A stretch of 64,000 bases of DNA from Actinomycetospora endophytica (lineage in GTDB: Bacteria; Actinomycetota; Actinomycetes; Mycobacteriales; Pseudonocardiaceae): positions 1 through 64,000 of the forward strand of contig NZ_JAJNDB010000009.1 of NCBI RefSeq assembly GCF_021026375.1. Reading direction: 5' to 3'. Under the pieces are notes generated by a model. It was given only the letters and a program-made list of their open reading frames with translations, was not told the origin of the DNA and did not search any database. Positions 22,831-63,730 of the stretch are shown piece after piece. The position numbers and the translations under genes were made by a program. Each line of letters starts with the position of its first letter. The first letter of the stretch is position 1.

Positions 22831-22850
22831 CATCATATATTTCACACTAT
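22831..22850. promoter_or_regulatory. AT-rich regulon element 1 (permease promoter)
   Basis: CATCATATATTTCACACTAT, 85 bp before the permease. The core ATATATTT with a nearby CACA matches the element found before the other catabolic transcription units. Confidence 0.55.
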
Positions 22851-22934
22851 CGGTGTCGCTCAGCGCTCCGGCCGTCGCGTCCGTCTCCGCGGCCTGATCG
22901 CGAGCCTCGCGCACGACGTACGGAGAGGTTGGCG

Positions 22935-24254
22935 ATGACGCTTCACGAGGGCGCCCCGGCGGCGACCACGGCGGTTCCGGCGGCCACCAGGCCGCGCAGG
23001 GTCCTGCCCGCCGCGATCGCCTCGCAGGCGATCGAGTACTACGACTTCCTGATCTACGGTACGGCCGCCTCGCTGGTCTTCGGGGCCCAGTTCTTCCCAT
23101 CCGTGAGCCCTGTCGCAGGAGTGCTCGCCGCGTTCGCGACGTTCGCCGTCGGGTTCGCCGGCCGCCCGATTGGGGCGGCCGTTTTCGGTCACATCGGCGA
23201 CCGCTACGGGCGCAAGCCCGCCCTCATCGGGGCGCTCGTGCTGATGGCCGCGGCCACCCTGCTGATCGGCGCCCTGCCGACCTACGCCTCGGTCGGCGTG
23301 GTGGCGCCGGTCCTCCTCGCCCTCCTGCGCGTGCTGCAGGGCATCTCGGTCGGGGGGCAATGGGCGGGGGCGACGCTCATCTCCCTCGAGCACGCCGACC
23401 CCCGTCGACGGGGCCTGCACGCGGCACTGCCCCAGATCGGGGTGTCGGTCGGGATGATCCTCGGGACGTTGGTGTTCCTGCTGGTGAGCGGGACCACCTC
23501 GGGTGCGCAGTTCTCGGCGTGGGGGTGGCGCATCCCCTTCCTGCTCACCGTGGTGATGTTCCCGATCGCGTACTACATGCACCGCTACATCTCCGACACG
23601 CCGGCGTTCCGTGCCGCGGAGGCGGCCCTGCTCGCGGAAGGAGAGCGGCCGCGCTCGTCGGTGCTCCAGATCCTGCGCCGACCACGCCAGATGCTGGTCG
23701 CGGCCGCGACGTTCCTCGTCGCCACGATCCTCTTCTACGTCACTGCGACCGGTGTCCTCGACTTCGGAGTGCGTGACGTCGGGATCCCGAAGTCGACGAT
23801 GCTCACGGCGATCATGCTGTCGATGGTGGCGTTCGGGGTCGCGACAGTCCTCTGTGGCTGGCTCTCCGACGTCGTCGGGCGCCGGTCGGTCTACGCCGGC
23901 GGTGCCGCGCTCGCGGGGGTCTGGGCGTTCGCCCTGTTCCCGCTGGTCGAGACGGGGAGCTTCGGGTGGGTGCTGCTGGCCGTGTGCGTCGCCCAGGTGG
24001 CGGTCGGGGCGATGTTCGGGACGGCGAGCTCGATGTTCGCGGAGATGTTCCCGCCGAGCGTGCGGTACTCCGGGGCCGCGCTGGGCAACCAGGTCGCCAA
24101 CGTCGTCGGCGGTGGGTTGGCCCCCTTCGTCGTAGTCGCGCTCATTGCCGGCACCGGGACGACGCTGTCGGTCGCCGTCTACGTCGCCGTCGCGGCCGCG
24201 ATCAGCCTCGCAGCCGTCGGGTTGGTGCGGTTCGCCGCGCCCGACTCCGCCTGA
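22935..24254 (+). CDS. MHS-family (MFS) organic-acid permease
   Basis: A 439-residue 12-span transporter of the metabolite:H+ symporter group. The family signatures are IEYYDFLIYGTAA in the first span, GHIGDRYGRKPALIGALVLMA (loop 2-3) and LRVLQGISVGGQWAGATLISLEHAD. The mirrored WLSDVVGRRSVYAGGAAL is in the second half. MHS carriers import organic acids such as benzoate, shikimate or proline-like compounds with protons. The ATG has GGAGAGG 6 bp upstream. As the first gene of the catabolic block it probably brings in the substrate. Confidence 0.9.
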   Translation: MTLHEGAPAATTAVPAATRPRRVLPAAIASQAIEYYDFLIYGTAASLVFGAQFFPSVSPVAGVLAAFATFAVGFAGRPIGAAVFGHIGDRYGRKPALIGALVLMAAATLLIGALPTYASVGVVAPVLLALLRVLQGISVGGQWAGATLISLEHADPRRRGLHAALPQIGVSVGMILGTLVFLLVSGTTSGAQFSAWGWRIPFLLTVVMFPIAYYMHRYISDTPAFRAAEAALLAEGERPRSSVLQILRRPRQMLVAAATFLVATILFYVTATGVLDFGVRDVGIPKSTMLTAIMLSMVAFGVATVLCGWLSDVVGRRSVYAGGAALAGVWAFALFPLVETGSFGWVLLAVCVAQVAVGAMFGTASSMFAEMFPPSVRYSGAALGNQVANVVGGGLAPFVVVALIAGTGTTLSVAVYVAVAAAISLAAVGLVRFAAPDSA

Positions 24255-24305
24255 GTCGCCATCGCTCCTGCGATCCCCGCCACCCAGCGGTTGTCAGTCA
24301 CTCAG

Positions 24306-24323
24306 AACAAAATATATTGTTTC
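24306..24323. promoter_or_regulatory. AT-rich regulon element 2 (CoA-transferase operon)
   Basis: AACAAAATATATTGTTTC, an imperfect palindrome (ACAA N6 TTGT around AATATATT), 28 bp before the CoA-transferase start. Confidence 0.65.
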
Positions 24324-24351
24324 GGAGTCGTCGAAGGTTGAGGAGCTGCGC

Positions 24352-26076
24352 GTGACGGGCCGGGTGGAGTTCTGCGGGCTGGCCGAGGCGGTCGAGCGTC
24401 ATGTGCGGCCGGGCGACGCGATCCACGTGGTGATGGGCCACAGCCGGTGGAGCGCGCTGGTGCGGGAGGTGGCCCGGCAGCACTGGGGAAGGCCCTCGGG
24501 TTTCACCCTGATCATGGCGAGCCTGTCCTCGCTGGGCACCGTGCTGGTGCGGGCGGGGTGTCTGGCGAAGGTCGTGTCGGTGTACTCGGGGGACTCGTTC
24601 CCGGTGTTCACCCCGAACCCGGTCTATCAGGCCGGGTTCGGGGCGCACGGTGGCGTGGAGGTCGAGCACTGGTCGTTCCTGACGTTCATCCAGCGGCTGC
24701 GGGCCGCGGCGACCGGCGTGCCCGCCGTCGTCACCGGCTCGGTCGCTGGCTCGTCGATGGCGGCCAACGCGGCCTATACCGAGGTCGACACCCCGTTCGG
24801 TCACCTCGGTCTGGTCGCTGCGCTCGCGCCGGACGTCGCGCTGCTGCACGCCGCGGTGGCCGACCGGGAGGGCAATCTCGCGATCGCACCGCCGATGTTC
24901 GAGGGCGTGGTCGGGGCAATGGCCGCCCGGCGGGGGGTCGTCGCCAGTGTGGAGCGGGTCGTGGACGACCTGCGGCCGTGGTCGGGGTTCGTGCGCATCC
25001 CGGCGCACCGGGTGCTGGCCGTCGTCGAGGCACCCTTCGGCGCCCATCCCGGGGGGGTGTTCGCCGGGCCTCGGGAGCAGGCGCTGCCGGTGTCGGGCTA
25101 CGGCGAGGACATCGGGTTCTGGGTCGAGGTGCGTGAGGCCAGCCGGCGCGACGACTTCGATGACTGGATCCGAGAGTGGGTCCTCGAGCCGGCCGATCAC
25201 GACGCCTACCTGGCCAAGCTGGGCCGGGAGCGTCTCGACGGGCTCGTGGCGGCCGCGACCGGACGGCGCCCCGACGGGCCCGTCGCCGACGCCGGCGAAC
25301 CGTCTGCGACGGAGCGGGCGGCGGTGTGGTTGGCGGACCTGCTGGTGGAGCGGATCGCCGCGATCGGCGCCGACGGGGTGCTGGCCGGGGCCGGCCTGGC
25401 CAACCTCGCCGCCTGGGACGGCGTCGCCCGTGCCCGGCAGGCCGGTCACCGGGTCGCGCTGACCGCCGAGCTCGGGTTGTGGGGCTACGACCCCGCCCCG
25501 GGCGACCCCTACCCGTTCAGCTTCGCCAACTTCGGAACCTCGTCGATGCTGCTCGACACCGAACAGGTCCTCGGTTCCTTCGTCACGAGCCCGACCACCC
25601 GGGCGATCGCGTGTGTGGGCGCCGCGCTGATCGACCGGCACGGCAACATCAACACCACCCGAACCGACGACGGCACCCACCTGGTCGGCTCCGGGGGCGC
25701 CAACGACGTCGTCACCGGCGCGGACGAGACCCTGGTCGTGGGCACGATGAGCCCACGCCGGTTCGTCGCTGCCACCGACTACATCACCAGCCCCGGCGAG
25801 CGGGTGCGGGCGGTCGTGACCGACCTCGGCATCCTGGAGAACGCCGACGGCGAGCTGGTGCTCACCGCGGTCGCTCCCGGACCGGAACCGCAGCACGAGC
25901 GGATCGAGCTCGCCCGGTCCCGGTGCGGGTGGGCGCTCAAGACCGCCGATCACGTCCGGGACCTGCGCCCGGTGAGCACCGCCGACGTCGGGACCCTGCG
26001 GTCCTTCGACCCCGACGGACTCTTCCTCGGCCGCCGGACGCGGCCACACCCCGGCAGCGAAGGGAAGCAGCAGTGA
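24352..26076 (+). CDS. Fused family-I CoA transferase (alpha+beta, IpdAB/glutaconate type)
   Basis: A 574-residue single chain. The N-terminal half (to about residue 290) has the alpha-subunit pattern (LAEAVERHVRPGDAIHVVMG, AGCLAKVVSVYSGD, TEVDTPFGHLGLVAALAPDVALLHAAVADREGN). The C-terminal half is beta-like, with TAELGLWGYDP giving the expected active-site Glu position and RFVAATDYITSPGERVRAVVTDLGI. Most relatives are two separate subunits, so this is a fusion. The family moves CoA between acids or opens cyclic beta-dicarbonyl CoA esters (IpdAB). GTG with GAGGAG 6 bp upstream. It heads an operon with a dehydrogenase, a hydratase and a nitroreductase. Confidence 0.85.
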   Translation: MTGRVEFCGLAEAVERHVRPGDAIHVVMGHSRWSALVREVARQHWGRPSGFTLIMASLSSLGTVLVRAGCLAKVVSVYSGDSFPVFTPNPVYQAGFGAHGGVEVEHWSFLTFIQRLRAAATGVPAVVTGSVAGSSMAANAAYTEVDTPFGHLGLVAALAPDVALLHAAVADREGNLAIAPPMFEGVVGAMAARRGVVASVERVVDDLRPWSGFVRIPAHRVLAVVEAPFGAHPGGVFAGPREQALPVSGYGEDIGFWVEVREASRRDDFDDWIREWVLEPADHDAYLAKLGRERLDGLVAAATGRRPDGPVADAGEPSATERAAVWLADLLVERIAAIGADGVLAGAGLANLAAWDGVARARQAGHRVALTAELGLWGYDPAPGDPYPFSFANFGTSSMLLDTEQVLGSFVTSPTTRAIACVGAALIDRHGNINTTRTDDGTHLVGSGGANDVVTGADETLVVGTMSPRRFVAATDYITSPGERVRAVVTDLGILENADGELVLTAVAPGPEPQHERIELARSRCGWALKTADHVRDLRPVSTADVGTLRSFDPDGLFLGRRTRPHPGSEGKQQ

Positions 26077-27245
26077 GCGCACCGACCGTGCAGGTCGTCG
26101 ACGACGAGGACTTCGCGCAGATCCGCGCCCAGGTCCGGGAGTTCGTCCGCGAGCAGGTCGTCCCCCGGGAACAGGAGATCGCCGAGTCCGACGCCATCCC
26201 GCCGGACATCCGGGCCCGGGCCGCGGACATGGGCCTGTTCGGCTACGCCCTGCCCCAGGCCTACGGCGGACTCGGGCTGGTGATCACCCAGGACGTCGAG
26301 CTCGCGTTCGAGCTGGGCTACACCGCCCTGTCGTTCCGGTCGCTGTTCGGGACCAACAACGGCATCGCCGGGCAGGTCCTGGTCGGTTACGGCACCGACG
26401 AGCAGCGCAAGCAATGGCTCGAGCCGATGGCCGAGGGCCGCTGCATCGCCTCCTTCGCGTTGACCGAGCCCGAGGCCGGCTCGGATCCCTCGGGGATGCG
26501 CGCGACCGCGACGTGGACCGACGGCGCGTGGGTCATCGACGGGCAGAAGCGCTACATCACCAACGCGCCGCTCTCCGACCTGCTGGTCACCTTCGCGAAG
26601 GTGCGCGGCACCGCCGAGAGCGACGGCCGGATCGCGGTCTTCTTGGTCCCGACGACGACGGCCGGGGTCATCGTCGGGCCGAAGGACCGCAAGATGGGCC
26701 AGGAAGGCGCCACGTCGTCGGAGGTGACCTTCGACGGGGTGCGGGTCGGGCCGGAGGCGCTGATCAGCGGCGAGATCGACACCGGGTTCCGGGCGGCGAT
26801 GGCGGTGCTGGCCCGCGGGCGGGTGCACATCTCGGCGCTGGCGATGGGCCTGTCCCAGCGCGCGCTGGACGAGTCGGTGGCCTACTCCGCGGTGAACCGG
26901 CAGGGTGGGGTCCCGACGGGGGAGCGGCAGCTGGTGCAGGCGATGCTCGCCGAGCAGGCCTCGCTGGTGATGGCCGGCAAGGCGACCGCCCGTGAGGCGG
27001 CGGCGCGCTACCTCGACGGCACCGACCGTCGGATCGGCCCGTCCGCGGCGAAGCTGTTCTGTACCGAGGCCGCCGGCAAGGTCGCCGACCTCGCCGTGCA
27101 GGTCCACGGCGGTGCGGGATACATGCGCGAGATGCCCGTCGAGCGGCTCTACCGCGACGTGCGCCTGCTCCGGCTCTACGAGGGCACCAGCGAGATCCAG
27201 AAGCTGATCGTCGGCCGCGAACTGATCCGGCAGGCGCAGGCGTGA
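26073..27245 (+). CDS. Acyl-CoA dehydrogenase
   Basis: A 390-residue FAD enzyme of normal length. Motifs are [20 protein letters not shown] (FAD/substrate loop), [13 protein letters not shown], and the C-terminal [17 protein letters not shown] in which Glu370 is the likely catalytic base. [19 protein letters not shown] is also typical. It inserts a 2,3-double bond into an acyl-CoA and passes electrons to ETF. GTG overlaps the CoA-transferase stop (GTGA), with GAAGGGAAG upstream, so it is tightly coupled. Confidence 0.93.
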
Positions 27246-28033
27246 CGGGCTACGACCGGTTCCCGAGCCTGCGCGTCGACGGCTCCGACCCCTCCGGCGT
27301 CGTCGAGCTCGTCCTCGACGCACCGAACCTCAACGCGGTCAGCGAGGCCGCCCACGCCGAGCTCGCCGAGATCTGGCGGGACTTCGACACCGACGACGCG
27401 GTCAGGGTCGTGCTGCTGCGCGGGGAGGGCAAGGGCTTCTCCGCGGGCGGATCCTTCGACCTCGTCGAGAAGCTCTCCACCGACTTCGAGGCCCGCACCC
27501 GCACCATGCGCGAGGCCCGCGACCTGGTCTACAACGTCATCGACTGCTCGAAGCCGATCGTCTCCGCGATCCACGGACCCGCCGTTGGCGCCGGCCTGGT
27601 CGCCGGGATGCTCGCCGACGTCTCGGTGGTCACCCGGACCGCGAAGATCATCGACGGTCACACCCGGCTGGGCGTTGCCGCCGGCGACCACGCCGCGATC
27701 TGCTGGCCGCTGCTGTGCGGGATGGCGAAGGCCAAGTACTACCTGATGACCTGCCGCCCCCTCTCCGGGGAGGAAGCCGAGCGGATCGGGCTGGTCTCCG
27801 TGTGCGTCGAGGACGACCAGCTCCTGACGACGGCCCGGGAGATCGCCACCGAGCTCGCCCACGGCGCCCCGAACGCGATCCGCTGGACCAAGCAATCGTT
27901 GAACAACTGGTACCGGCAGGTCGCCGGAGCGATCTTCGACAACTCCCTGGCCCTCGAGTTCTACGGCTTCGCCGGGCCGGAGGTCCGCGAGGGACTGGCC
28001 TCACACCGAGAGCGGCGCCCGCCGCAGTTCTGA
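27242..28033 (+). CDS. Enoyl-CoA hydratase/isomerase (crotonase) family
   Basis: A 263-residue crotonase. The oxyanion-hole segments are [14 protein letters not shown] (about residues 61-74) and [21 protein letters not shown] (about 110-130). In the active-site region [14 protein letters not shown] the usual catalytic Glu pair is not clearly conserved, so an isomerase, lyase or hydrolase rather than a standard hydratase is possible. The GTG start overlaps the dehydrogenase stop. It probably acts on the dehydrogenase product. Confidence 0.88.
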
Positions 28034-28043
28034 GAGGACGACG

Positions 28044-28706
28044 ATGACCTTCGAGGAACTCCTGAGGTCCCGGTGGAGCTGCCGGGCCTTCCGGGACGAG
28101 GAGCTGTCGGACGAGCTGCTCGACGACATCTTCCGCGTCGCGCAGCGGACCGCGTCGTGGTGCAACACGCAGCCCTGGCAGGTCCTGCTCACCCGCGGCG
28201 CGGCCACCAAGCGGTTCGCCGAGAGCCTCTCGGCGCACGTCCGGGGGAACCCGCCCAGCCCCGACCTGGAGATGCCCGCCGAGTACCGGGGCGTCTACCG
28301 GGACCGGCGCCGCGGCGCCGGGTACGCGCTCTACGCGAGCCTCGGGATCGACCGACAAGACATGCCGGCCCGTGAGGCCCAGATGATGCGGAACTACCTG
28401 TTCTTCGGGGCCCCGCACGTCGCCGTGATCACCACCGACAGGCTCCAGGGCACCTATGGGGCGATCGACTGCGGTGGCTACGTCGCCAACGTCCTCACCG
28501 CGGCGCGGGAGCGCGGGGTCGCGACGATCCCGCAGGCCGCGATTGCGGTGTACTCCGGGCACGTGCGGGAGTTCTTCGAGCTGCCGGAGGACCGTCTCGT
28601 GGTCTGCGCCATCTCGCTCGGCTACGCCGACGAGTCCGACCCGGTCAACGGTTTCCGCACCGAGCGCGCCGAGGTCGCCGACGCGGTGACGGTGGTGGAC
28701 CGCTGA
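28044..28706 (+). CDS. Nitroreductase-family flavoprotein
   Basis: A 220-residue FMN-binding protein: RWSCRAFRDEELSDELL at the N-terminus (FMN phosphate contacts), WCNTQPWQVLLTRG, then DCGGYVANVLTAARERGVATIPQAAIAVYS near the end. It reduces its substrate with NAD(P)H; besides nitro groups the family reduces enones and quinones or dehalogenates. Within a CoA-ester operon a role on an unsaturated intermediate is plausible but unproven. The ATG follows the hydratase stop by 10 bp with GAGAGGA. Its stop abuts that of the convergent hydratase gene inside a GCTGATCAGC palindrome. Confidence 0.88.
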   Translation: MTFEELLRSRWSCRAFRDEELSDELLDDIFRVAQRTASWCNTQPWQVLLTRGAATKRFAESLSAHVRGNPPSPDLEMPAEYRGVYRDRRRGAGYALYASLGIDRQDMPAREAQMMRNYLFFGAPHVAVITTDRLQGTYGAIDCGGYVANVLTAARERGVATIPQAAIAVYSGHVREFFELPEDRLVVCAISLGYADESDPVNGFRTERAEVADAVTVVDR

Positions 28707-29567
28707 TCAGCGCCAGGTGACTGAGCCCGTGACGGCGGGCTCGCCGTCGGGCGGCCCGGCGGAGAGGTCGTCGCCGTTCTCGGCGACCACGACCGGTGTG
28801 CCCGCGAAGGTGGGCCGGCGGAGCCGGAAGGTGAATGTGGCGAGGTCGGGTGAGAGGCCGGCCCGCCGTGCCGGTTCCAGCAGCAGCAGGGCGAGCAGGG
28901 GTCCGTGCACGACGAGACCGGGGTAGCCCTCGACGTCGCGGGCGTAGGGCTCGTCGTGGTGGATTCGGTGGGCGTTGTAGGTCAATGCCGAGTACCGGAA
29001 GAGCATCCGCGAGTCGGGGAGGAGGCCGATGCGGTCGTCGGGGAGGGTCGCCCTCTCGATCGCCGGCGGTGCGTGCTGACTGCCCGACGACGATGCCGTG
29101 TTGCGGCCTTCGTCGGTGGCGGGGGCCTGCCGGTAGACGACGTCCTGTTCCTCGACCACGGCGAGCCCGTCGCTGTCGGAGTACTCGCGTCGCTCGGTCA
29201 CGAACAGCATCTCGCCGCTACGGCCGGTCTTCGGAACGATGTCGGTGATGCGGCAGTCGCGGTGCACCTCGGTGCCGAGCCGCAACGGCGCCCGGAACTC
29301 CACGCGTCCCCCGGCGAACATCCGCAGACGGCGGGGGATCGGCGGCAGGAAGTGCCCGGACGCGAGGTGGCCGTCGGGACCGAGCTCGTCCGAGCGCGGG
29401 TGCTCGAGGAAGTACAGCCACTGCCACAGCGGCGGAAGGCGATCACCCGACGGCGGTGGCTGGTCCAGCAGGGCGGCGAACGCGTCGGTGGGCCACCGGT
29501 CGAGTGTCACCACGGCGGACTCGGACTGCGGTGCCCAGTCCTCAATCGCGTGAGCGAGGGCGTTCAC
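28707..29567 (-). CDS. Double-hotdog hydratase (mesaconyl/itaconyl-CoA hydratase-like, MaoC superfamily)
   Basis: A 286-residue protein. Residues about 40-145 form an FAS1-like dehydratase hotdog (LPPLWQWLYFLEHPRSDELGPDGHL, then FLPPIPRRLRMFAGGRVEFRAPLRLG). The C-terminal half has the MaoC hydratase pattern RYSALTYNAHRIHHDEPYARDVEGYPGLVVHGPLLALLLLEPAR with the catalytic Asn/His-type segment. This is the layout of mesaconyl-C4-CoA or itaconyl-CoA hydratases. The GTG overlaps the upstream dehydrogenase stop. Dehydrogenase, this hydratase and the CitE-like lyase at 34 kb parallel the branched dicarboxylic acyl-CoA breakdown set of mycobacteria. Confidence 0.85.
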   Translation of the reverse strand: MNALAHAIEDWAPQSESAVVTLDRWPTDAFAALLDQPPPSGDRLPPLWQWLYFLEHPRSDELGPDGHLASGHFLPPIPRRLRMFAGGRVEFRAPLRLGTEVHRDCRITDIVPKTGRSGEMLFVTERREYSDSDGLAVVEEQDVVYRQAPATDEGRNTASSSGSQHAPPAIERATLPDDRIGLLPDSRMLFRYSALTYNAHRIHHDEPYARDVEGYPGLVVHGPLLALLLLEPARRAGLSPDLATFTFRLRRPTFAGTPVVVAENGDDLSAGPPDGEPAVTGSVTWR

Positions 29568-30724
29568 GGTTCGCCGAGTCCGCCGCGTTTGACCAGCTGG
29601 CCGGCGATGACGTTGCGTTGGATCTCGTTGGTGCCCTCGCCGACGATCATCAGCGGGGCGTCGCGGAAGTAGCGTTCCACGTCGTACTCGGTGGAATAGC
29701 CGTAACCGCCGTGGATGCGGACCGCGTTCAACGCGACGTCCATGGCGATCTCGGAGGTGAACAGCTTCGCCATCCCCGCCTCCATGTCCGCCCGCTCCCC
29801 GGCGTCGAAGCGCTCCGCGGCGTGCAGGATCAACTGCCGCGCCGCGGTGATCTTGGTGGCCATGTCGGCGAGGTAGTTCCCGATCGACTGGTGCTGCCAG
29901 ATCGGCTTCCCGAACGCCTCCCGTTGCTGGGCGTAGGCCAGCGCGTCCTCGAACGCCGCCGTCGCGACCCCCAGCGCCCGGGCCGCGACCTGGATCCGCC
30001 CGGTCTCCAGGCCCTTCATCATCTGGGCGAACCCGCGGCCCTCCTCGCCGCCGAGCAGCGCGTCGGCGGGCACGGCCATGTCGGTGAAGTTGAGCTCGCA
30101 GGTCTCCACCCCCTTGTAGCCCAGCTTCGACAGGTCCTTCGACACCTCCAGCCCGGGCCCGTGCTCGACCAGCAGGATCGACACCCCTCGGTGCTTGGGC
30201 TCCGCGGCGGGGTCGGTCTTGCACAGCAGCGCGATCAACCCGGACCGGCGCGCGTTGGAGATCCAGGTCTTGGACCCGTTCACCACGTACGAGTTCCCGG
30301 ACCGGCGCGCGGTCGTGGTCATCGCCTGCAGATCCGACCCACCGCCGGGCTCGGTCAGCGCCATCGTCGCCCGCAGCTCCCCGGTCGCCATCCGCGGCAG
30401 ATACGAGTCCTTCTGCTCCTGGGTCCCGAACGCCACCAGCAGCTTCGCGACCACGGTGTGCCCGCCCATCGCCCCGGCCAGCGACATCCAGCCCCGCGCC
30501 AGTTCGGCCGTGACCAGCGCATAGCAGGGCATCGACACCGGCGCCTCACCCCAGGGCTCCGGGATCGCCAGTCCGTAGATCCCGAGCTCCTTCATCGACT
30601 CGATCAGGGCTTCGGGATAGCTGTTGGCATGCTCGAGCTCGGAGACCACCGGCTTGACGTCCTTGTCCACGAACGCCCGCACCGTCTCCACCACGAACCG
30701 TTCCTCGGACGACAGGCTCGACAC
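29564..30724 (-). CDS. Acyl-CoA dehydrogenase
   Basis: A 386-residue enzyme with all usual blocks: MALTEPGGGSDLQAMTTTA, YVVNGSKTWISNA, LSKLGYKGVETCELNF, ALAYAQQREAFGKPIWQHQSI, and GEGTNEIQRNVIAGQLV with probable catalytic Glu363. It oxidises an acyl-CoA to the enoyl-CoA for the overlapping hydratase gene. GTG start with GGGAG upstream. An AT-rich regulon element lies about 33-50 bp before the start. Confidence 0.93.
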   Translation of the reverse strand: MSSLSSEERFVVETVRAFVDKDVKPVVSELEHANSYPEALIESMKELGIYGLAIPEPWGEAPVSMPCYALVTAELARGWMSLAGAMGGHTVVAKLLVAFGTQEQKDSYLPRMATGELRATMALTEPGGGSDLQAMTTTARRSGNSYVVNGSKTWISNARRSGLIALLCKTDPAAEPKHRGVSILLVEHGPGLEVSKDLSKLGYKGVETCELNFTDMAVPADALLGGEEGRGFAQMMKGLETGRIQVAARALGVATAAFEDALAYAQQREAFGKPIWQHQSIGNYLADMATKITAARQLILHAAERFDAGERADMEAGMAKLFTSEIAMDVALNAVRIHGGYGYSTEYDVERYFRDAPLMIVGEGTNEIQRNVIAGQLVKRGGLGEP

Positions 30725-30756
30725 CGTGAATCACTCCCACCAGTAGCGCGATCGTC

Positions 30757-30775
30757 CACACATAATATATTCATC
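30757..30775. promoter_or_regulatory. AT-rich regulon element 3 (dehydrogenase/hydratase operon)
   Basis: ACACATAATATATTCATCG, with the exact core AATATATT at 30764-30771 and a flanking CACA, just upstream of the minus-strand dehydrogenase. Confidence 0.65.
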
Positions 30776-30849
30776 GTCGGCGGTAGCAAGGTCTGCCGTG
30801 GTGACCTGTCACCCCCGCCGAGGCCCCGGCCAGCGCCGGGGACGGGGTG

Positions 30850-31551
30850 CTAGGAGACGCTCTCCTCGTCGGACCACAGGCCGCGCTTGGACAGCTCGTC
30901 CACCAGGCGGTCGGCGCCGGCGAGGATGTGCTGGTTCATCAGGGAGCGCACCTTGCGCACGTCCCGGCGGTGGAGAGCTTCGACGATCTTGGGGTGGTCT
31001 TGGCGCGCACCCTCCACCTGGCCCTCGATGGAGGCGTAGAAGCGGTTGGGAAGGTGCTTGACGGCCGCGGCGAGCAGGAAGGTCAGTCGCCGGGAGTCGG
31101 CCGCGAGGTTGATCTCGCGGTGGAAGGCGTGCCCGAGGGCGGCCATCCGTTCGGCATCGTCGTTGTCGACCGCCGCCTCGTGCTCCGCGAGGACGGCATC
31201 GAGTCGCTCGAGTTGCTCGGGAGTGATCCGTTTGGCGGCCCGGGCGGCCAATTCGCTCGCCAGCTGCGCCTGGGTCCAGAACAGGTCACGCAGGTCCTGC
31301 TCGGTGAATGCCGCGGCCATGAAGCCTCGACGGGGGACGAGCTCGACGAAGCCCTCGCTCTGCAGGGTGAGTAAGCCCTCGCGGACCGGGGTGTTGCTGA
31401 TCCCCATGGCCTCGGCGATCGGCTCGAGCCGTAGGAAGTCGCCGGGGCGGACCTCTCCCGAGATGATCCGCTCGCGGACGTACGTGGCCACTTCCTCGGG
31501 CAACGGCGTGCGGTGGTTGCCCCGCGAGATCGCGGTTACCTCGTCGGCCAT
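30850..31551 (-). CDS. GntR-family regulator with FCD ligand domain
   Basis: A 233-residue FadR/VanR-type regulator. The winged helix (about residues 12-75) includes EEVATYVRERIISGEVRPGDFL and EAMGISNTPVREGLLTLQSEGFVELVPRRGF. The FCD all-helical domain (about 85-215) carries metal/ligand residues in GHAFHREIN, RQDHPKIVEAL and MNQHILAGADRLV. Such proteins release DNA on binding an organic acid or acyl-CoA. I prefer the ATG over a GTG 21 bp upstream because GGGGGAA is well placed. It lies within the catabolic block and is the best candidate for recognising the repeated AT-rich elements. Confidence 0.92.
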   Translation of the reverse strand: MADEVTAISRGNHRTPLPEEVATYVRERIISGEVRPGDFLRLEPIAEAMGISNTPVREGLLTLQSEGFVELVPRRGFMAAAFTEQDLRDLFWTQAQLASELAARAAKRITPEQLERLDAVLAEHEAAVDNDDAERMAALGHAFHREINLAADSRRLTFLLAAAVKHLPNRFYASIEGQVEGARQDHPKIVEALHRRDVRKVRSLMNQHILAGADRLVDELSKRGLWSDEESVS

Positions 31552-31573
31552 CTCCGGTTCCCCCAGGATCACG

Positions 31574-31585
31574 CATGATATTGCG
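31574..31585. promoter_or_regulatory. Weak AT-rich element before the GntR gene
   Basis: CATGATATTGCG, 23 bp before the GntR start. It matches the regulon core only loosely and may reflect weak autoregulation or be unrelated. Confidence 0.3.
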
Positions 31586-31714: not shown

Positions 31715-31738
31715 CGCTTCCGAGTGAAGAGGTACGAG

Positions 31739-54306: not shown

Positions 54307-54340
54307 TCCCACCCGCGAACACCTACCTGGAAGGTCGACC

Positions 54341-57289: not shown

Positions 57290-57302
57290 GTCAGAATTGA
57301 GA

Positions 57303-57320
57303 AACTTAATATATGATTGT
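57303..57320. promoter_or_regulatory. AT-rich regulon element 10 (thiolase operon)
   Basis: AACTTAATATATGATTGT, ending 3 bp before the thiolase ATG, as with the CitE-like gene. Confidence 0.6.
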
Positions 57321-57323
57321 GTA

Positions 57324-58514
57324 ATGCGACGAGCCGCCATCGTGTCCCCTGTCCGCACCCCCGTCGGGGCCTTCGGCGGGGCATTGCGGGCGGTGCCTGT
57401 GGAGGATCTGGCGGCGACGGTGGTGCGGGCGGTCGTCGAGCGGACCGCGGTCGACCCTGGTCGGATCGAGGACGTGGTGTTCGCCCAGTCCTACGCGAAC
57501 TCGGAGACCCCGTGTGTCGGGCGGTGGGCCGCGTTGCATGCCGGGCTGCCGATCTCGGTGCCGGGCCTGCAGACCGACCGCCGCTGCGGCGGTGGGCTGC
57601 AGGCGTTGGTCACCGGCTCGATGATGGTGCAGACCGGTGCCGCGGATGTCGTGCTGGTCGGTGGCGTGGAGAGCATGTCGAACATCGAGTACTACTCGAC
57701 GACGGCCCGCTGGGGCTCCCGGGCCGGGACGGTGTCGCTCTACGACCGCCTCGACCGGGGCCGGGAGCGTTCCCAGCCCGAGCACCGGTTCGGCCCGATC
57801 AGCGGAATGGTCGAGACCGCCGAGAACCTCGCCGAGCGCTACGGCGTCACCCGCGAGCAGGCCGACGAGTTCGCCGCCGCGAGCCAGCAGAAAGCCGCGG
57901 CCGCCTGGGACCGGGGCGCCTTCGACGACGAGGTCGTGCCGGTCACCGTCCGGCAGCGCCGGGGCGAGCCCGTCGTCGTGACCCGCGACGAGGGCGTGCG
58001 CCCCGACACCACCGTCGAGACCCTCGGCAAGCTGCGCACCATCACCCCCGGCGGGACCGTCACCGCGGGCAATGCCAGCCAGCAGAACGACGCCGCTTCG
58101 GCCTGTCTCGTCGTGGCGGAGGAGGCACTGGGGGACCTGGAGCCGCTGGGGTTCCTCGAGGGCTGGGCGGCCGCGGGCTGCGACCCGGCCACCATGGGGA
58201 TCGGCCCCGTGCCCGCGGTGGAGAAGCTCTTCGCGAAGACCGGGGCGGGCTTCGACGACGTGGACCTCGTCGAGATCAACGAGGCGTTCGCCGTGCAGGT
58301 CCTCTCGGTGCTGGCCGCCTGGGGCTGGCACGACCCGGACCGGCTCAACGTCAACGGCTCGGGCATCTCGCTCGGGCATCCCATCGGCGCCACCGGCATG
58401 CGGATCCTCACCACGATGCTGCACGAGCTCCGCCGCCGCGGCGGCCGCCGGGCGCTGGAGACGATGTGCATCGGCGGCGGGCAGGGCATGGCCGCGCTGT
58501 TCTCCGCGGCATGA
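57324..58514 (+). CDS. Thiolase (acetyl-CoA acyltransferase)
   Basis: A 396-residue thiolase with nucleophile Cys88 (QTDRRCGGGLQA), His352 (NGSGISLGHPIGATG), second Cys382 (METMCIGGGQG) and NEAF (VEINEAFAVQ). It cleaves a 3-ketoacyl-CoA with CoA. There is no ribosome site and the AT-rich element almost touches the ATG, so a leaderless transcript is likely. The next gene overlaps its stop (ATGA). Confidence 0.93.
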   Translation: MRRAAIVSPVRTPVGAFGGALRAVPVEDLAATVVRAVVERTAVDPGRIEDVVFAQSYANSETPCVGRWAALHAGLPISVPGLQTDRRCGGGLQALVTGSMMVQTGAADVVLVGGVESMSNIEYYSTTARWGSRAGTVSLYDRLDRGRERSQPEHRFGPISGMVETAENLAERYGVTREQADEFAAASQQKAAAAWDRGAFDDEVVPVTVRQRRGEPVVVTRDEGVRPDTTVETLGKLRTITPGGTVTAGNASQQNDAASACLVVAEEALGDLEPLGFLEGWAAAGCDPATMGIGPVPAVEKLFAKTGAGFDDVDLVEINEAFAVQVLSVLAAWGWHDPDRLNVNGSGISLGHPIGATGMRILTTMLHELRRRGGRRALETMCIGGGQGMAALFSAA

Positions 58515-59653
58515 TCACCGACCACCTGCGGCCGGGCGACACCGTCGTCGTCGGGCAGACCAGCGCGGAACCGCCGACGCTGGTCGACGCGCTCCTCGAC
58601 GCCCGCACCGACGTGACCGCCTTCGTCGGCTACACCGCCAACGACGCGTGGCGGCGGGCGCGGTGCCGGGTGGTCACCTACGTCGCCGGCGGAGTGCTGC
58701 GCCGGGTGCCGACGGTCGAGTACCTGCCCACCCACCTGAGCCGGGTGGAGGAGCACGTCGTGGCTGGGCGGCTCGCCGCGGACGTGGTCCTGCTGCGGGT
58801 CGGCCCGGCCGACGTCGACGGGTTCCACGACCTCGGGCCGACCGTGGACTACGTCTGGGCCGCCGCGCAGCGGGCCCGGGTCGTGCTCGTCGAGGTCGAC
58901 GAGCACATGCCGCGCACCCGCTCACGCCGCCGGCTGCACCGCTCGCTCGTGACCGAGGCGTTCCCCGCCGACCGCCCGCCGATCACGACGGGGTCGAAGC
59001 CGCCGTCCGAGCTCGACCGGGCCGTCGCCGGCCGGGTCGCCGCGCTGGTGCCCGACGGCGCCGCGGTCCAGCTCGGTCTCGGCGGTCTGGCCGACGCGGT
59101 GGCGGCCGAGCTGGGGTCCCGACGGGGCCTGCGGATGCGCTCCGGGCTGGTGGGGGACTGGCTGCCGGGGCTGGCCGAGGCGGGCGCGCTGGACTCCGTG
59201 GTCGCCGGCATGACCCTCGGCGGACCCGACCTCTACGCCTTCCTCGACGACAACCCGATCGCCGAGTTCGCGCCCGGGTCCGAGATCACCGCCGCCGTCG
59301 AGGGCCCGTTCGTCGCCGTGAACTCCGCGGTGGAGGTCGACCTGCTCGGCCAGATCGGCGCCGAGTACGTCGGGGATCGCCTCGTCGGCGGAGTCGGGGG
59401 CCAGGTCGACTTCCTCCGCGCCGCCCACGGCCGCGGCGTCGGGGTCGTGGCGCTGCCCTCGGTGACCACCACGGGCGCCACCCGGATCGTGCCCCGACTC
59501 GCCGACCCGGTGACGACGTCGAAGAGCGACGTCGACGTTGTCGTCACCGAGCACGGCGTGGCCGACCTCCGCGCCTGCACCGTCCGGGAACGGGCCGAGC
59601 GGCTGATCGCGGTAGCCCACCCCGACCATCGGGCCGGCCTCACCCGGGAGTGA
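58511..59653 (+). CDS. Acetyl-CoA hydrolase/transferase (Cat1-type) family protein
   Basis: A 380-residue family-I-related CoA transferase. Motifs are LGLGGLADAVAAEL, SGLVGDWLPGL, AVNSAVEVDLLGQIGAEYVGD (with the family's catalytic Glu), VGGVGGQVDFLRAA and VVTEHGVADLRACTVRERAERLIAVAHPDHR. It is about 50 residues shorter than usual at the N-terminus. It transfers CoA between acetate or another short acid and the pathway acid, or hydrolyses it. Translationally coupled to the thiolase, with which it may recycle CoA. Its end overlaps the convergent MmgE gene by 14 bp. Confidence 0.85.
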   Translation: MITDHLRPGDTVVVGQTSAEPPTLVDALLDARTDVTAFVGYTANDAWRRARCRVVTYVAGGVLRRVPTVEYLPTHLSRVEEHVVAGRLAADVVLLRVGPADVDGFHDLGPTVDYVWAAAQRARVVLVEVDEHMPRTRSRRRLHRSLVTEAFPADRPPITTGSKPPSELDRAVAGRVAALVPDGAAVQLGLGGLADAVAAELGSRRGLRMRSGLVGDWLPGLAEAGALDSVVAGMTLGGPDLYAFLDDNPIAEFAPGSEITAAVEGPFVAVNSAVEVDLLGQIGAEYVGDRLVGGVGGQVDFLRAAHGRGVGVVALPSVTTTGATRIVPRLADPVTTSKSDVDVVVTEHGVADLRACTVRERAERLIAVAHPDHRAGLTRE

Positions 59654-61049
59654 GGGGGAGCAGCAACGCGCGCTCGACGTCGTCGACCTTCTCGAGCGCC
59701 AGGATGTGGTCGATCAGCGTTGCGACCGTCCCGTCATCCAGCGGGAGGACGGTCGAGAGCGCGGCGCACGCCCGGAACTTCTCGACGAGGTCGTGCTCGT
59801 CGAGGGGGAGGTCGGGGTGGCCCTTCACGGTCGTGTACCCGCCGACGACCTCGCGGCCGTCCCGGAGCGTCACCCTCACGCGCGCGCCCCAGGACGGGAG
59901 CGTCCCGTCCCGCTCCGCCGACACCCGCGCCATGAGGGCCCGCACGTCGGCCCGCGCCCGGGCGTCCTCGGAGTAGGAGTCGACGAAGACCCGGCCGTCC
60001 AGCGCCGCGGTCGCCACGGCATACGGCAGGCTGAACTGGCATTCCGGCACGGTGCGGGGGTGCCAGGCCGTGGCCTCCGGTTCGCACACCGCGTTCCAGC
60101 CCGAGGCCGACACGGCGACGTGGACGCCCGCGACGTCGGCTGCCGTGACGCCGTTCGCGCCGAGCAGCTCGGTGATCCCGTCGATGGCGGAGTGCGAGAA
60201 GTAGCAGGCGCTGTGGCGCTTGGTCGTGATCCGCGACGCCGCCCACCGCTGCCCCAGATCGCGGGTGAGGACGTCCGGGTCGGTCTCCCACCGCGCCGAG
60301 GCCAGGAACCCCTTCGGTCCGGTGAGGACCTGCTCTCGGGGTCCGGTGATGCCCCGCGCGGCGAGCTGGCAGGCCGTGATCGCCGCCTGACAGACGAGGC
60401 CGTGGTGCATGCGCACCATGAGCGTGGCCGGCGAGTAGATCGCCATGGTGTGCGGCGCGGTCATCGTCCGGGCGATCCCCATGGCGTTCTCCAGGACCTC
60501 GGAGGAGAACCCGAGGAGTTTGCCCACGGCGGCAACCGCCCCGAACACGTAGTGCCCGCCGCAGTCGCCGGCGGGGATCCCGGAGCTGATGACTCGGTAC
60601 GCGGTCCCGATCCGCACCAGGACCTCCTGCGCGACGACCAGGGCTGTCAGGAACTCCTGCCCGGTGACGGGGTCGTCCCGGAGTCCCAGCGCGGCCAGGA
60701 GCGAGGCCACGGCGTACTCGCTGACGTGGCCCGCCTCCTCGTGCAGGTCACCGCAGTCCATCGCGCGCGGCATCGGGCCGATGGCGAGCGCGGCCGCCGC
60801 GGCGGGGACCCGCCCGCCGTAGCAGGGCACCACCGATTCCGCCGCGCCGCCGTTCGCGGTCACCAGGTCGACGATTTCGGCGATCCCGTCCATCCCGGAA
60901 CCGCCGACGGTCACGCCGATCCCGTCGAGCAGCGTGTGCCGGGCGTGCCGGACGAGGTCGTCGGGAAGATCGGAGAACGTCGTCCCGACGACCATGCGGC
61001 ACAGGGTGCTCATCGGGTCCTCGTCGCCCCGGGGGTCGAATCTCGGCAT
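59640..61049 (-). CDS. MmgE/PrpD family protein, copy 1
   Basis: A 469-residue protein with the family's helical N-domain (RHARHTLLDGIGVTVGGSGMDGI), AMDCGDLHEEAGHVSEYAVASLLAALGL, MTAPHTMAIYSPATLMVRMHHGLVCQAAITACQLAARGITGP, and KRHSACYFSHSAIDGITELL with the substrate-binding Lys/His. PrpD is 2-methylcitrate dehydratase; other members dehydrate or isomerise tricarboxylic and amino-dicarboxylic acids. The ATG overlaps the CaiB stop. It is the last gene of a three-gene operon. Confidence 0.9.
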   Translation of the reverse strand: MPRFDPRGDEDPMSTLCRMVVGTTFSDLPDDLVRHARHTLLDGIGVTVGGSGMDGIAEIVDLVTANGGAAESVVPCYGGRVPAAAAALAIGPMPRAMDCGDLHEEAGHVSEYAVASLLAALGLRDDPVTGQEFLTALVVAQEVLVRIGTAYRVISSGIPAGDCGGHYVFGAVAAVGKLLGFSSEVLENAMGIARTMTAPHTMAIYSPATLMVRMHHGLVCQAAITACQLAARGITGPREQVLTGPKGFLASARWETDPDVLTRDLGQRWAASRITTKRHSACYFSHSAIDGITELLGANGVTAADVAGVHVAVSASGWNAVCEPEATAWHPRTVPECQFSLPYAVATAALDGRVFVDSYSEDARARADVRALMARVSAERDGTLPSWGARVRVTLRDGREVVGGYTTVKGHPDLPLDEHDLVEKFRACAALSTVLPLDDGTVATLIDHILALEKVDDVERALLLPLTPG

Positions 61050-62239
61050 CAGCGCGGCTCCTCGTCGGTGACCGTGCCCAGGACGTCGAGGGCGATGAGC
61101 TTCTCGACCCGCTCGTCGTCGTAGACCTCGCCGGCGATCTCGCGGGTGTGCTGCCCGAGGCGCGGGGTGGGGCCGCCACGGTCGGGCCGGGCCCCGTCGA
61201 AGCGCCACGGCGCCCGGAGCAGCGACATCCCGTGCGCGCCCGGCTCGAAGAGGTCCAGCCACTGGGTCTGCGGGTGCTCGACGTAGGTCGCCATCGTCTG
61301 GACCGGCGCGTACGGCACGTCGAAGTGGGTCAGGCGCTCCTCCCAGTCTCCCAGGGAGCGCTTCGCGAACTCGGCCTCGACGATCGGGACCAGCGCGAAG
61401 TAGTTCGCCTCGCGGTGCCGGTAGGGGGTGAAGCGCGGGTCGTCGGGCAGGTCCGGCCGCTCCATCGCCGCGCACAGGTTGCGCCAGAACTTCTCCGACG
61501 ACGACAGGTGCACCGCGATCGACTCGCCCGACGAGGTCGCGACGCAGAAGTTCTGCGCCTGCGGGTGCCGGGTGGTGCGGGTCGGGTCCGCCCCGGTGTC
61601 GACGTACTGGGACAGCGCGTCGGTGGCAAGGATGCTGACCGCCTCGTAGAGCGAGGTGTCCACCCGCATCCCGTCCCCGCCGCGACCCCGGCCCACCAGC
61701 GCCGCGAGCACGCCGGCGGCGCTGGTCAGCCCGGTGACGACGTCGGCGAGGATCGTGCCCGAGAGCTGGGCCTGACCGGGCTCGCCGAGGATCGAGTAGA
61801 GCCCGCCGTAGGCCTGGCCGATGGTGTCGTAGGCCGGGCGGTCGCGCAGCGGCCCGCCGTCGCCGAAGCCGTTGACCGACGCGAAGATGACGTCGGGTCG
61901 CAGCTCGCGGCACACGTCCGGGCCGAGGCCGAGCGCGGCCAGCTTGCCGGGACGCATGTTCTCGAAGACCACGTCGAAGCGGGGCAGCAGGGCCTTGACG
62001 AACTCCAGCCCCTCGGGGGTCTTGAGGTCGACCGCGGCGCTGCGCTTGCCGGCGTTGACCTGCGCGAAGTAGGGGCTGCGGTCGTCGTCCTTGCGGCGGA
62101 AGTCGTCACCCGCGAGGGACTCGATCTTGACGACGTCGGCGCCCAGCCCGGCCAGCAGCGCCCCGCCCATCGGCATGGAGATGTAGCCGCCGAGCTCGAG
62201 GACCCGGATCCCGGTCAGCGGCTTCTGCGGCCCCGTCAT
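61049..62239 (-). CDS. CaiB/BaiF class III CoA transferase
   Basis: A 396-residue protein: IRVLELGGYISMPMGGALLAGLGADVVKIE at the N-terminus, catalytic Asp166 (GTILADVVTGL), AYDTIGQAYGGLYSILG and FDVVFENMRPGKL. Unlike the racemase at 53 kb it keeps the transferase Asp without the His/Glu racemase set. It moves CoA from a donor such as succinyl-CoA to a pathway acid. ATGA overlaps join it to both MmgE genes, so acid dehydration/isomerisation and CoA activation are probably consecutive. Confidence 0.9.
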   Translation of the reverse strand: MTGPQKPLTGIRVLELGGYISMPMGGALLAGLGADVVKIESLAGDDFRRKDDDRSPYFAQVNAGKRSAAVDLKTPEGLEFVKALLPRFDVVFENMRPGKLAALGLGPDVCRELRPDVIFASVNGFGDGGPLRDRPAYDTIGQAYGGLYSILGEPGQAQLSGTILADVVTGLTSAAGVLAALVGRGRGGDGMRVDTSLYEAVSILATDALSQYVDTGADPTRTTRHPQAQNFCVATSSGESIAVHLSSSEKFWRNLCAAMERPDLPDDPRFTPYRHREANYFALVPIVEAEFAKRSLGDWEERLTHFDVPYAPVQTMATYVEHPQTQWLDLFEPGAHGMSLLRAPWRFDGARPDRGGPTPRLGQHTREIAGEVYDDERVEKLIALDVLGTVTDEEPR

Positions 62240-63672
62240 CGGACGATCAGTGTGTCGACGAGCGAGGAGGCCGGGGCGTCGAGGTCGTCGGAGGCGATGG
62301 CCGCGAGCAGCGCCTCGGTCTGCTCGGGGCCGAGCCGGCCGACGGTGAGGTCGCGGGCCTTCGCGTCCAGCTCGTCCTGCGGGATGGGGTTCTCGGACGT
62401 CCCGGTGGAGTCCTCGACGAACAGCCTCTCGGTGGTGCCGTCCCGGAAGGTCACGGCGATGTCGGCGACCCACTTGCCTGGATAGGCGGTGTCCAGGTCG
62501 GGCTTCGGCGTGATCCGCACCCGCTGGGCGAGCCGGGCGACGTCACCGTCGGCCCCTTGATGGGTCGAGCTCCGCTCCGCTGCGTCTCCCAGGAGCTTGA
62601 GCCGGCCCTCGAAGTAGTCGTGATGGGTGGTGAACCCGTTGCCGTGCCCCGTGGCGGCGAGCGCGAACTGGAAGGGCAGCGAGTACTGCAGCTGCTCGAG
62701 CGCCGAGGGCGAGTAGGCGTTCACGTTGCGGTTCCCGACGACCACGTCGCCGCCGGACTGGATGCCGAGCTCGACGGCATCGATGTCGTCTGCCCGCCCG
62801 ACGAACGTGCGGGCCCCGTCGACGAAGCCGTGGCAGCAGCCGCAGCAGCAGTACGGCTTGATCCAGACCTTCGTGATCTCGAAGGGGCGGTCCGGGGCGA
62901 ACCGCTCCACGGCGTCGTCCGCGAACGGGCGGCCCTTGAACACGGGGAGGAACCCCTTCGACCCGGTCAGGTACGCGAGCGGACCGGTGATCCCGGCCGC
63001 CGCCATCTCCGCGGCCCGGATGCCGTTGCGGGTCCCGATGCCCGCGTGCACGCGCTTCACCGAGCCGCCCGACGAGGTGTACTCGGTGGTCCCGGCGCTG
63101 TGGCTCATCGCGATCGCGAGCGCGTGCGTGGTCTGCTCCGCGTCGAAGCCGCGCATCCTCGCCACCACCGCCGCGGCGCCGAACGGCGCGAGCAGCGCGT
63201 GCGGGTGGAAGCCCCGTTCCAGCAGGTCGGGTGCGGCGAGCACGCCGACCCGGGTGTAGGCCTCGTAGCCCGCGACGATGCCGAGCAGCACGTCGCGCAT
63301 CGACGCGCCGTCCTCCTCGCCGATCGCCAGCGCCGCGGACACCACGGTGCTGCCGGGGTGGCTCGAGCTCGCGCGGTGCGCGTCGTCGTACTCGAAGCTG
63401 TGGCCGAGGGTGGCGTTGACGAACGCGGCGTCGCCGGCGCTCATCGCGTCGCCGGTGACGACGACCCGGGAGCGCCCGGGTGCGTGCGACCCCCGGGCGT
63501 AGTCGATGACCGCCCGGCACCACGGCAGCGTCTCGCAGCCGACCTGCAGGGCGAGCTGGTCCTGCATCAGGCGCCGCGCGCCGGCGAGCGCCTCGGCGGG
63601 TAGCGCGTCGAACTCCAGTTCCGCCACCAGGGCTCCGAGGGCGGCCTCGACCGGGGGGACCTCGCTCGTCAT
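62236..63672 (-). CDS. MmgE/PrpD family protein, copy 2
   Basis: A 478-residue relative of copy 1: VNATLGHSFEYDDAHRASSSHPGSTVVSAALAIGEEDG, the HPHALLAPFGAAAVVARMRG segment, MSHSAGTTEYTSSGGSVKRVHAGIGTRNGI, and KVWIKPYCCCGCCHGFVDGA. The CCCGCC cluster is unusual and may bind metal. It differs enough from copy 1 that the two probably act on different substrates or form a heteromer. The ATG has GAGGAG upstream. First gene of the operon, divergent from MaoC. Confidence 0.9.
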   Translation of the reverse strand: MTSEVPPVEAALGALVAELEFDALPAEALAGARRLMQDQLALQVGCETLPWCRAVIDYARGSHAPGRSRVVVTGDAMSAGDAAFVNATLGHSFEYDDAHRASSSHPGSTVVSAALAIGEEDGASMRDVLLGIVAGYEAYTRVGVLAAPDLLERGFHPHALLAPFGAAAVVARMRGFDAEQTTHALAIAMSHSAGTTEYTSSGGSVKRVHAGIGTRNGIRAAEMAAAGITGPLAYLTGSKGFLPVFKGRPFADDAVERFAPDRPFEITKVWIKPYCCCGCCHGFVDGARTFVGRADDIDAVELGIQSGGDVVVGNRNVNAYSPSALEQLQYSLPFQFALAATGHGNGFTTHHDYFEGRLKLLGDAAERSSTHQGADGDVARLAQRVRITPKPDLDTAYPGKWVADIAVTFRDGTTERLFVEDSTGTSENPIPQDELDAKARDLTVGRLGPEQTEALLAAIASDDLDAPASSLVDTLIVR

Positions 63673-63712
63673 CGCTGACTCCTCATCGCCGTGGCGGTTG
63701 GCTCATCGGCAA

Positions 63713-63730
63713 AGATAATATATTGTGCAT
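63713..63730. promoter_or_regulatory. AT-rich regulon element 11 (MmgE / MaoC divergent promoter)
   Basis: AGATAATATATTGTGCAT, identical to the 34236-34253 element. It is 41 bp from the MmgE start and 37 bp from the MaoC start. Confidence 0.65.

What the first reader, a model, noticed from the sequence alone, without database searches (positions are those of the whole stretch)
22831..63730. A repeated AT-rich element marks nearly every promoter of the catabolic block
In DNA of about 70 % GC, short AT runs stand out. Eleven intergenic or start-proximal sites (22831, 24306, 30757, 31697, 34236, 36199, 44589, 45542, 47199, 57303, 63713) carry an ATATAT-type core, four of them exactly AATATATT. 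Many have CACA on one side or TGTG on the other. Most lie 25-50 bp before a start codon, three lie between divergent genes, and two copies are identical over 18 bp. A twelfth, weak site precedes GntR. I saw none in the first 22.8 kb. This looks like a single operator/promoter element tying about twelve units into one regulon.
Basis: partly seen in the sequence, partly recalled or inferred. Interest (0 to 1): 0.88.

Follow-up and report, generated by a model that had tools for sequence, protein, structure and literature searches.

The report
AT-rich operator of a catabolic regulon
A short AT-only palindrome sits at nearly every promoter of a roughly 57-kb block of genes for breaking down carbon compounds, and comparison with other actinobacteria points to one local GntR-type protein as the switch that probably binds it, a neat but conventional kind of gene control.

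Summary
All 11 sites exist. AATATATT occurs five times in the 6.98-Mb genome, four of them here. A weight matrix trained only on other genomes' blocks ranks these 11 sites plus two beyond the window (C17:70663, 76438) as the top 13 hits in 764 kb of this genome (W22 model). A 400-kb sample from elsewhere in the genome has no A/T run of 8 or more. On C17, 13 of 18 promoter-type gaps in the block carry a site, against 0 of 46 outside. Orthologous regions in eight other genomes carry the same element, consensus about aACATAATATATTATGTt. The favoured binder is the block's GntR/FCD protein (30850-31572): its clade occurs in all nine genomes, whereas the AraC has no close ortholog in two that still have sites. 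It resembles Atu1419, whose Arg45 reads a G in an operator over the -10 box; here that residue is Asn and the operator base is A. Likely mechanism: repression at the -10 box, relieved by a pathway acid or acyl-CoA. Binding, repression and effector are inferred, not shown.

The parts
22828..22849 (-). AT operator site upstream of the MFS transporter gene (ATG 22935)
   Evidence: W22 matrix 25.3 bits
24303..24324 (-). AT operator site upstream of the CoA-transferase operon (GTG 24352); AATATATT core
   Evidence: W22 24.5 bits
30756..30777 (+). AT operator site upstream of the acyl-CoA dehydrogenase gene on the - strand (GTG 30724); AATATATT core
   Evidence: W22 23.1 bits
31698..31719 (-). AT operator site between gntR (-) and a CoA-ligase-like gene (+, ATG 31739); probable autoregulatory site
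   Evidence: W22 22.9 bits; starts
34234..34255 (-). AT operator site directly before HpcH/CitE-type lyase (ATG 34257); TATTGT lies 7 nt before the ATG; overlaps the end of a probable frame at 33100-34260
   Evidence: W22 24.4 bits
36197..36218 (+). AT operator site between araC-type gene (-) and the first hydantoinase operon (+)
   Evidence: W22 29.9 bits, best of the scan
44587..44608 (+). AT operator site upstream of an alpha/beta hydrolase gene on the - strand (ATG 44554)
   Evidence: W22 23.4 bits
45541..45562 (+). AT operator site between a hydrolase gene (-) and an AMP-binding ligase gene (+)
   Evidence: W22 21.2 bits
47199..47220 (-). AT operator site upstream of the second hydantoinase operon (ATG 47245)
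   Evidence: W22 26.8 bits
57300..57321 (+). AT operator site upstream of thiolase (ATG 57324); TATGAT lies 6 nt before the ATG
   Evidence: W22 25.6 bits
63711..63732 (-). AT operator site between MmgE/PrpD operon (-) and MaoC operon (+); AATATATT core, 18 bp identical to the 34236 site
   Evidence: W22 28.6 bits
30850..31572 (-). GntR/FCD transcription factor, the favoured binder; start may be the ATG at 31551
   Evidence: Pfam GntR 55.1 and FCD 65.1 bits, both above cut-off; clade in 9 of 9 genomes
35157..36143 (-). AraC-type transcription factor, disfavoured as the binder
   Evidence: Pfam AraC_binding_2 and HTH_18; no match in G153, at best 34% in G186
22935..64000 (.). Catabolic gene block served by the sites; continues to about C17:79600 outside the window
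   Evidence: Pfam, gene calls

Best explanation
The element is the operator of one local regulon. A GntR protein of the FCD type (like the VanR-group Atu1419), encoded at 30850-31572, binds an AT-only palindrome (core ATA|TAT, full form about aACATAATATATTATGTt) that overlaps or forms the -10 box. It thereby blocks RNA polymerase at about 19 transcription units (my count from gene order) of a 57-kb CoA-dependent catabolic block, probably its own gene included. An intermediate of the pathway, a carboxylic acid or acyl-CoA, releases it. Shown by calls: the sites, their rarity, their confinement to the block's promoters, their recurrence in other genomes, and the presence of the GntR clade in those genomes. 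Inferred: that GntR binds, that it represses, the overlap with -10 boxes (from sequence geometry), and the effector.
For: Matrix trained without the window ranks the 13 block sites first. 13 of 18 promoter-type gaps in the block have a site, 0 of 46 outside on C17. In six relatives 44 of 47 A/T runs of 8 or more are intergenic by my gene calls and they are more dyad-symmetric than letter-shuffled controls (231 against 213.7, sd 5.1, 0 of 1000), as a dimer's site should be. GntR clade (56-62% identity) in all eight other genomes of the first set; in a second set of five genomes picked by GntR alone, 4 of 5 have matrix hits of 15 bits or more nearby. 14 of 20 clade genes have a hit of 15 or more within 200 bp upstream. 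Sites exist where close AraC orthologs are missing. Congener G013 has orthologs of some catabolic genes but no clade GntR hit and no site on the 16.8-kb contig. Atu1419 Arg45, which reads G3, aligns with Asn60; the operator has A there.
Against: No binding or expression data. G388 has a clade GntR (62%) and no hit in 24.7 kb; G504 has one weak hit, 15.6. The own paralog on C10 (66%, also Asn) has no site in its 3.7-kb locus. 6 of 20 clade genes lack an upstream hit, and 10 of 27 less similar GntR genes without Asn have one, so Asn is not required for AT-rich sites. Dyad symmetry in the window's own sites is weak (80 of 2000 shuffles reach it; 106 of 1000).
Confidence: 0.68

Rival explanations
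1. The AraC-type protein (35157-36143) binds the element and activates the block.
For: It lies in the block, a site lies 64.5 bp before its start, and it is 57-59% identical in six of the eight other genomes of the first set, next to the same hydantoinase genes.
Against: No match in G153 and at most 34% in G186, which have four and five A/T runs in the fetched regions; no match at E 1e-20 in G301, G268, G514 and G388 and at best 31% in G504, although the first three have 7, 4 and 2 matrix hits. The element is a palindrome in the relatives, whereas AraC sites are usually asymmetric repeats (recalled).
Confidence: 0.1
2. The element is only a promoter -10 box, of the housekeeping sigma or of an alternative sigma factor, with no operator role.
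For: TATTGT and TATGAT lie 7 and 6 nt before the ATG at 34257 and 57324, the geometry of leaderless transcripts. AT-symmetric -10 boxes can fire both ways (recalled, no paper looked up).
Against: Absent from 46 of 46 promoter-type gaps outside the block on C17 and from 400 kb of background, so it is not the general -10 box. Single sites lie near the middle of divergent regions, and the symmetric 14-18 bp form recurs across genera. No sigma factor was found among the window's block proteins that I scanned; genes beyond the window were not scanned with Pfam.
Confidence: 0.1
3. The element is a nucleation point of a nucleoid protein of the Lsr2 type that silences an acquired block.
For: None of 17 congeners has a GntR hit above 45% identity or the TAATATATTGTG pattern within one mismatch (three of the 17 are 59-84% complete), so the block may be acquired. 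AT-rich steps in GC-rich DNA are classic Lsr2 targets (recalled).
Against: The block is not AT-rich (GC 0.718). A recurring palindrome at promoters of orthologous genes is more specific than Lsr2 is known to need (recalled). I did not search for lsr2 in this genome.
Confidence: 0.05

Closest known systems
Atu1419 of Agrobacterium fabrum, VanR-group FCD GntR, PDB 6z74 (PMC7797058; passages and section 19 seen)
   Same: Best PDB sequence match (E 6.9e-13), gapless through the helix-turn-helix. Palindromic operator overlapping -10 boxes, near its own gene and a catabolic cluster; inner T-A of each half-site is the same.
   Different: Operator ATGTATACAT with G3 read by Arg45; changing G3 to A abolishes binding. 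Here A at that place and Asn60 in the protein. Atu1419 has three such palindromes; this block has 13 sites.
[quoted passage not shown] passages seen)
   Same: Repressor of a carbon-degradation gene; operator covers -10 regions; released by C16- and C18-CoA. Its structure 9isw is also among the PDB matches.
   Different: Operator ATTGTCAGACAAT has the usual GT and AC; the effector of the present system is unknown.
BioR (FadR subfamily; mentioned in PMC4494728, passages and section 10 seen)
   Same: A regulator of this subfamily whose reported operator TTATMKATAA departs from the TKGT/ACMA consensus and is nearly all A/T.
   Different: Other sequence and other pathway (biotin, recalled); I made no homology test against BioR.

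Membership tests
GntR superfamily, FCD subfamily (the 30850-31572 protein) | GntR winged helix-turn-helix and FCD effector domain | tested here: met
   PF00392 55.1 bits (cut-off 27) and PF07729 65.1 bits (cut-off 24.3)
GntR superfamily, FadR/FCD subfamily (the operator) | Palindromic operator with TKGT/ACMA boxes | tested here: not met
   Learned core is ATA|TAT without conserved GT/AC; consensus from PMC4494728, which itself lists exceptions such as BioR and NanR
GntR superfamily, FadR/FCD subfamily (the operator) | Dyad symmetry | tested here: met
   Met in the relatives (0 of 1000 shuffles reach the observed value, 47 runs); weak in the window's sites alone (80 of 2000; 106 of 1000)
VanR group within FCD | Six-helix effector domain and metal-binding histidines | not tested
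   Only sequence similarity to VanR-group Atu1419 and AlkR; no structure was predicted
Regulator-operator pair (GntR with this element) | The protein binds the sites and changes expression of the block | not testable with these tools
   Needs gel shift, footprinting and RNA-seq
AraC/XylS activator as binder of the element | Factor present wherever the sites are | tested here: not met
   No match in G153, at best 34% in G186; no match in G301, G268, G514, all of which have sites

The most novel reading that the evidence does not exclude
A GntR/FCD clade in actinobacteria has moved from a G-reading to an A-reading recognition helix (Asn where Atu1419 has Arg45), giving an AT-only operator that doubles as the -10 box. 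In DNA of about 70% GC such a sequence almost never arises by chance, so one protein can run a whole catabolic block of about 19 units, and repressor and operator set are inherited together across genera.
Probability: 0.4. Interest if true: 0.62.

Novelty: new variant of a known kind. Interest (0 to 1): 0.5.

Why it matters
It gives a predicted regulator, operator and gene list for an uncharacterised CoA-dependent catabolic pathway seen here in several actinobacterial genera, so that the pathway's extent and inducer become directly testable. It also offers a possible case of operator specificity following one recognition-helix residue, and shows that in GC-rich genomes an AT-only operator stands out enough to be found by eye.

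Tried and rejected
Generic -10 boxes: rejected; all-A/T TAWWWT hexamers are 0.49 per kb in the block against 0.01 in 400 kb of background, the looser TANNNT 1.20 against 0.59. AraC as binder: disfavoured. AATATAT places elsewhere: those on C1 lie in or next to stretches of GC 0.56-0.58; the C14:206818 site (16.7 bits W22) lies between an acetyltransferase-like and a recombinase-like frame by my reading of the translations, no profile search; the C10:855850 AATATATT scores 10.0 with W22. None was taken as a regulon member.

Dyad symmetry in the window alone was weak in two tests (80 of 2000 shuffles; 106 of 1000, 14 sites including one in the low-GC island). The relatives' figure (0 of 1000) is circular, since those sites were picked with a palindromic matrix; I rely, where runs were picked by A/T length alone. 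Palindromic against free matrix at width 18: log-likelihood 349.2 against 380.1 for 27 more parameters, which favours the palindrome by BIC and is a near tie by AIC (my arithmetic). Of the 11 seeds per model only the best was printed.

Literature searches for the motif or the cluster, judged from listings only, showed nothing relevant: AATATATT with GntR, 3 papers; ATAATATATTAT, 4; acetophenone carboxylase/hydantoinase/GntR terms, 2; actinobacterial GntR regulon terms, 2; SNTPVRE, 0. Only open-licence papers are held. The pathway's substrate was not identified: among the NCBIfam rows shown for 20 proteins no equivalog passes its cut-off (some lists are capped at 25 rows). The likely gene at 33100-34260 has no Pfam match up to E 1. 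No structure was predicted.
Full report
WHAT WAS CHECKED. The window is 71.6% GC and is bases 1-64000 of contig C17 of a 6.98-Mb genome in 17 contigs. AATATATT occurs five times in the genome, four in the window and one on C10. AATATAT occupies 16 places (overlapping strands counted once): seven in the window, two in a low-GC island at C17:80-87 kb and seven elsewhere (two on C1, one each on C3, C10, C12, C13 and C14). The longer AATATATTGTGCAT, up to two mismatches, occurs only at 34240 and 63717.

RARITY. C17:22800-79600 (GC 0.718) has 13 A/T runs of eight or more; the first 22.8 kb has none; C17:88-184 kb has two; twenty 20-kb stretches taken at round coordinates on six contigs (400 kb) have none, and no ATATAT. 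Two runs beyond the window, at 70667 and 76442, lie between divergent genes and extend the set to 13. The low-GC island at C17:80-88 kb (GC about 0.59) has two more runs, which I do not count as members.

AN INDEPENDENT MATRIX. I took regions around GntR or AraC homologs from other genomes: G032 and G070 (same family), G153 and G186 (same order), Saccharopolyspora ipomoeae (G200), Nocardia alni (G201), N. kruczakiae (G202) and N. mikamii (G203). They share many of the window's genes, and A/T runs recur at promoters of these orthologs. From six of these eight (G070 and G202 dropped as near duplicates of G032 and G203) 136 non-convergent intergenic sequences were used for motif finding, window excluded. 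Eight models (four widths, palindromic or free, best of 11 seeds each) all gave the same AT element, about aACATAATATATTATGTt. Scanned over 764 kb of the own genome, the W22 free matrix ranked the 11 sites and the two new ones as hits 1-13 (29.9 to 20.3 bits); the next is 17.9, in the low-GC island; in the 400-kb random sample the best is 13.5, at a contig end. The W18 palindromic matrix is less clean: the island hit at 86883 (21.5) ranks 11th, ahead of three of the 13 sites; 76439 ranks 17th (15.0), below C14:206819 (18.7), the contig-end hit in the random sample (16.9) and a C1 hit (15.4). The 764 kb includes five 20-kb stretches and a C10 region chosen because they hold AATATAT or the GntR paralog, so their weaker hits are enriched by choice.

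CONFINEMENT TO PROMOTERS. By my own GC-based gene calls, C17:1-184000 has 18 promoter-type gaps in the block, 13 with a hit of 18 bits or more, and 46 outside, none with such a hit (Fisher p 6.5e-10). The five without a site are between same-strand neighbours 33-72 nt apart. Two caveats: the island has almost no called genes and is hardly represented; and the gap 33103-34257 is probably filled by an uncalled frame (33100-34260, 386 codons, GC at third positions 0.853, no stop; no Pfam match), so the 34236 site overlaps the end of that frame while lying at the start of the lyase gene. Each site can serve one or two units, giving about 19 predicted units (my count from gene order). At 34236 and 57303 the core holds TATTGT and TATGAT 7 and 6 nt before the ATG, the spacing of a leaderless transcript.

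WHICH PROTEIN. The window's block encodes a GntR/FCD protein and an AraC-type protein. GntR clade members of 56-62% identity were found in all eight other genomes, within the regions that hold the sites. The AraC is 57-59% identical in six of them, without a match in G153 and at most 34% in G186; G153 and G186 have four and five A/T runs in the fetched regions. In a second set, five genomes picked by GntR alone from 394 of the class, hits of 15 bits or more in the 20-40 kb fetched number 7 (G301), 4 (G268), 2 (G514), 1 (G504, 15.6 bits) and 0 (G388); AraC has no match in four of these five and is 31% at best in G504. Among 17 congeners the best GntR hit is 45% identical, and none has TAATATATTGTG within one mismatch; three of the 17 are only 59-84% complete. 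One congener, G013, has orthologs of hydantoinase A and B (74% and 68%) and weaker homologs of some other genes on a 16.8-kb contig, without any A/T run of seven or more and with a best W22 score of 10.8. So the element follows the GntR more than the catabolic genes; this last control is a single case.

MECHANISM BY ANALOGY. The best PDB match is Atu1419 (6z74, E 6.9e-13), aligned without gaps through the helix-turn-helix. Its operator is ATGTATACAT, overlapping -10 boxes; Arg45 contacts G3, and changing G3 to A abolishes binding (PMC7797058, passages and section 19). Arg45 aligns with Asn60 here. Asn is found in 18 of 20 clade members (Ser and Ile in the others) and in 0 of 27 less similar homologs, which have Val, Ala, Pro, Gln, Lys or Ile and never Arg. 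The operator half-site is A3-T4-A5 (0.90, 0.89, 0.92) against G3-T4-A5 in Atu1419, which fits an Asn-adenine contact (PMC4494728 section 10 states that Asn and Gln in general prefer A). Against a strict coupling: 10 of 27 homologs without Asn also have an upstream hit of 15 or more, compared with 14 of 20 clade members, so AT-rich operators belong to a wider group; and since none of the 47 has Arg, my data hold no Arg-bearing contrast. AlkR, another VanR-type repressor, also covers -10 regions and is released by acyl-CoA (PMC12042122, passages). By analogy I propose repression at the -10 box and induction by a pathway acid or acyl-CoA.

THE BLOCK. In the window Pfam gives CoA transferases of three kinds, four AMP-binding or PaaK-like ligases, two acyl-CoA dehydrogenases, enoyl-CoA hydratase, thiolase, HpcH/CitE lyase, two MmgE/PrpD proteins, MaoC, aldehyde and short-chain dehydrogenases, and two hydantoinase A/B pairs. 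Names used for genes beyond the window are my reading of their translations, not profile results. The first hydantoinase A is nearest to caprolactamase and acetophenone carboxylase models but far below their cut-offs. The substrate stays unknown; a CoA-dependent route for an unusual carboxylic acid or cyclic compound is my guess.

VERDICT. The mechanism, a VanR-like repressor with an AT-only operator, is a variant of a known kind. Binding and repression remain to be shown.

Noticed in passing
G000:C10:828593-830600 (L087): A second copy of the acyl-CoA dehydrogenase/GntR pair (91% and 65-66% protein identity; dehydrogenase DNA 85% over 1170 bp) has no AT site; between its two genes lies instead a perfect inverted repeat with 14-bp arms, TGAGCAGTAATTGA and its complement.
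   Followed up: partly
G000:C17:80000-88000 (L008, L009): A low-GC island (about 0.59) with almost no genes in my calls lies just beyond the catabolic block.
   Followed up: no
L105, L106, L111, L112, L142: Several genomes carry two or three copies of the GntR clade near the block (three on G200:C13, two each in G202, G203 and G514), which may mean several effectors on one operator.
   Followed up: no
window 33100-34260: A probable 386-codon gene that my caller missed; it starts within the stop of the CoA-ligase-like gene and ends in the HpcH start and AT site; no Pfam match up to E 1.
   Followed up: partly
L062, L063, L069: Less similar GntR/FCD genes in other genomes (41-43% identity) have strong AT-rich hits (26-27 bits) directly upstream, suggesting AT-only operators in a wider GntR group.
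   Followed up: no
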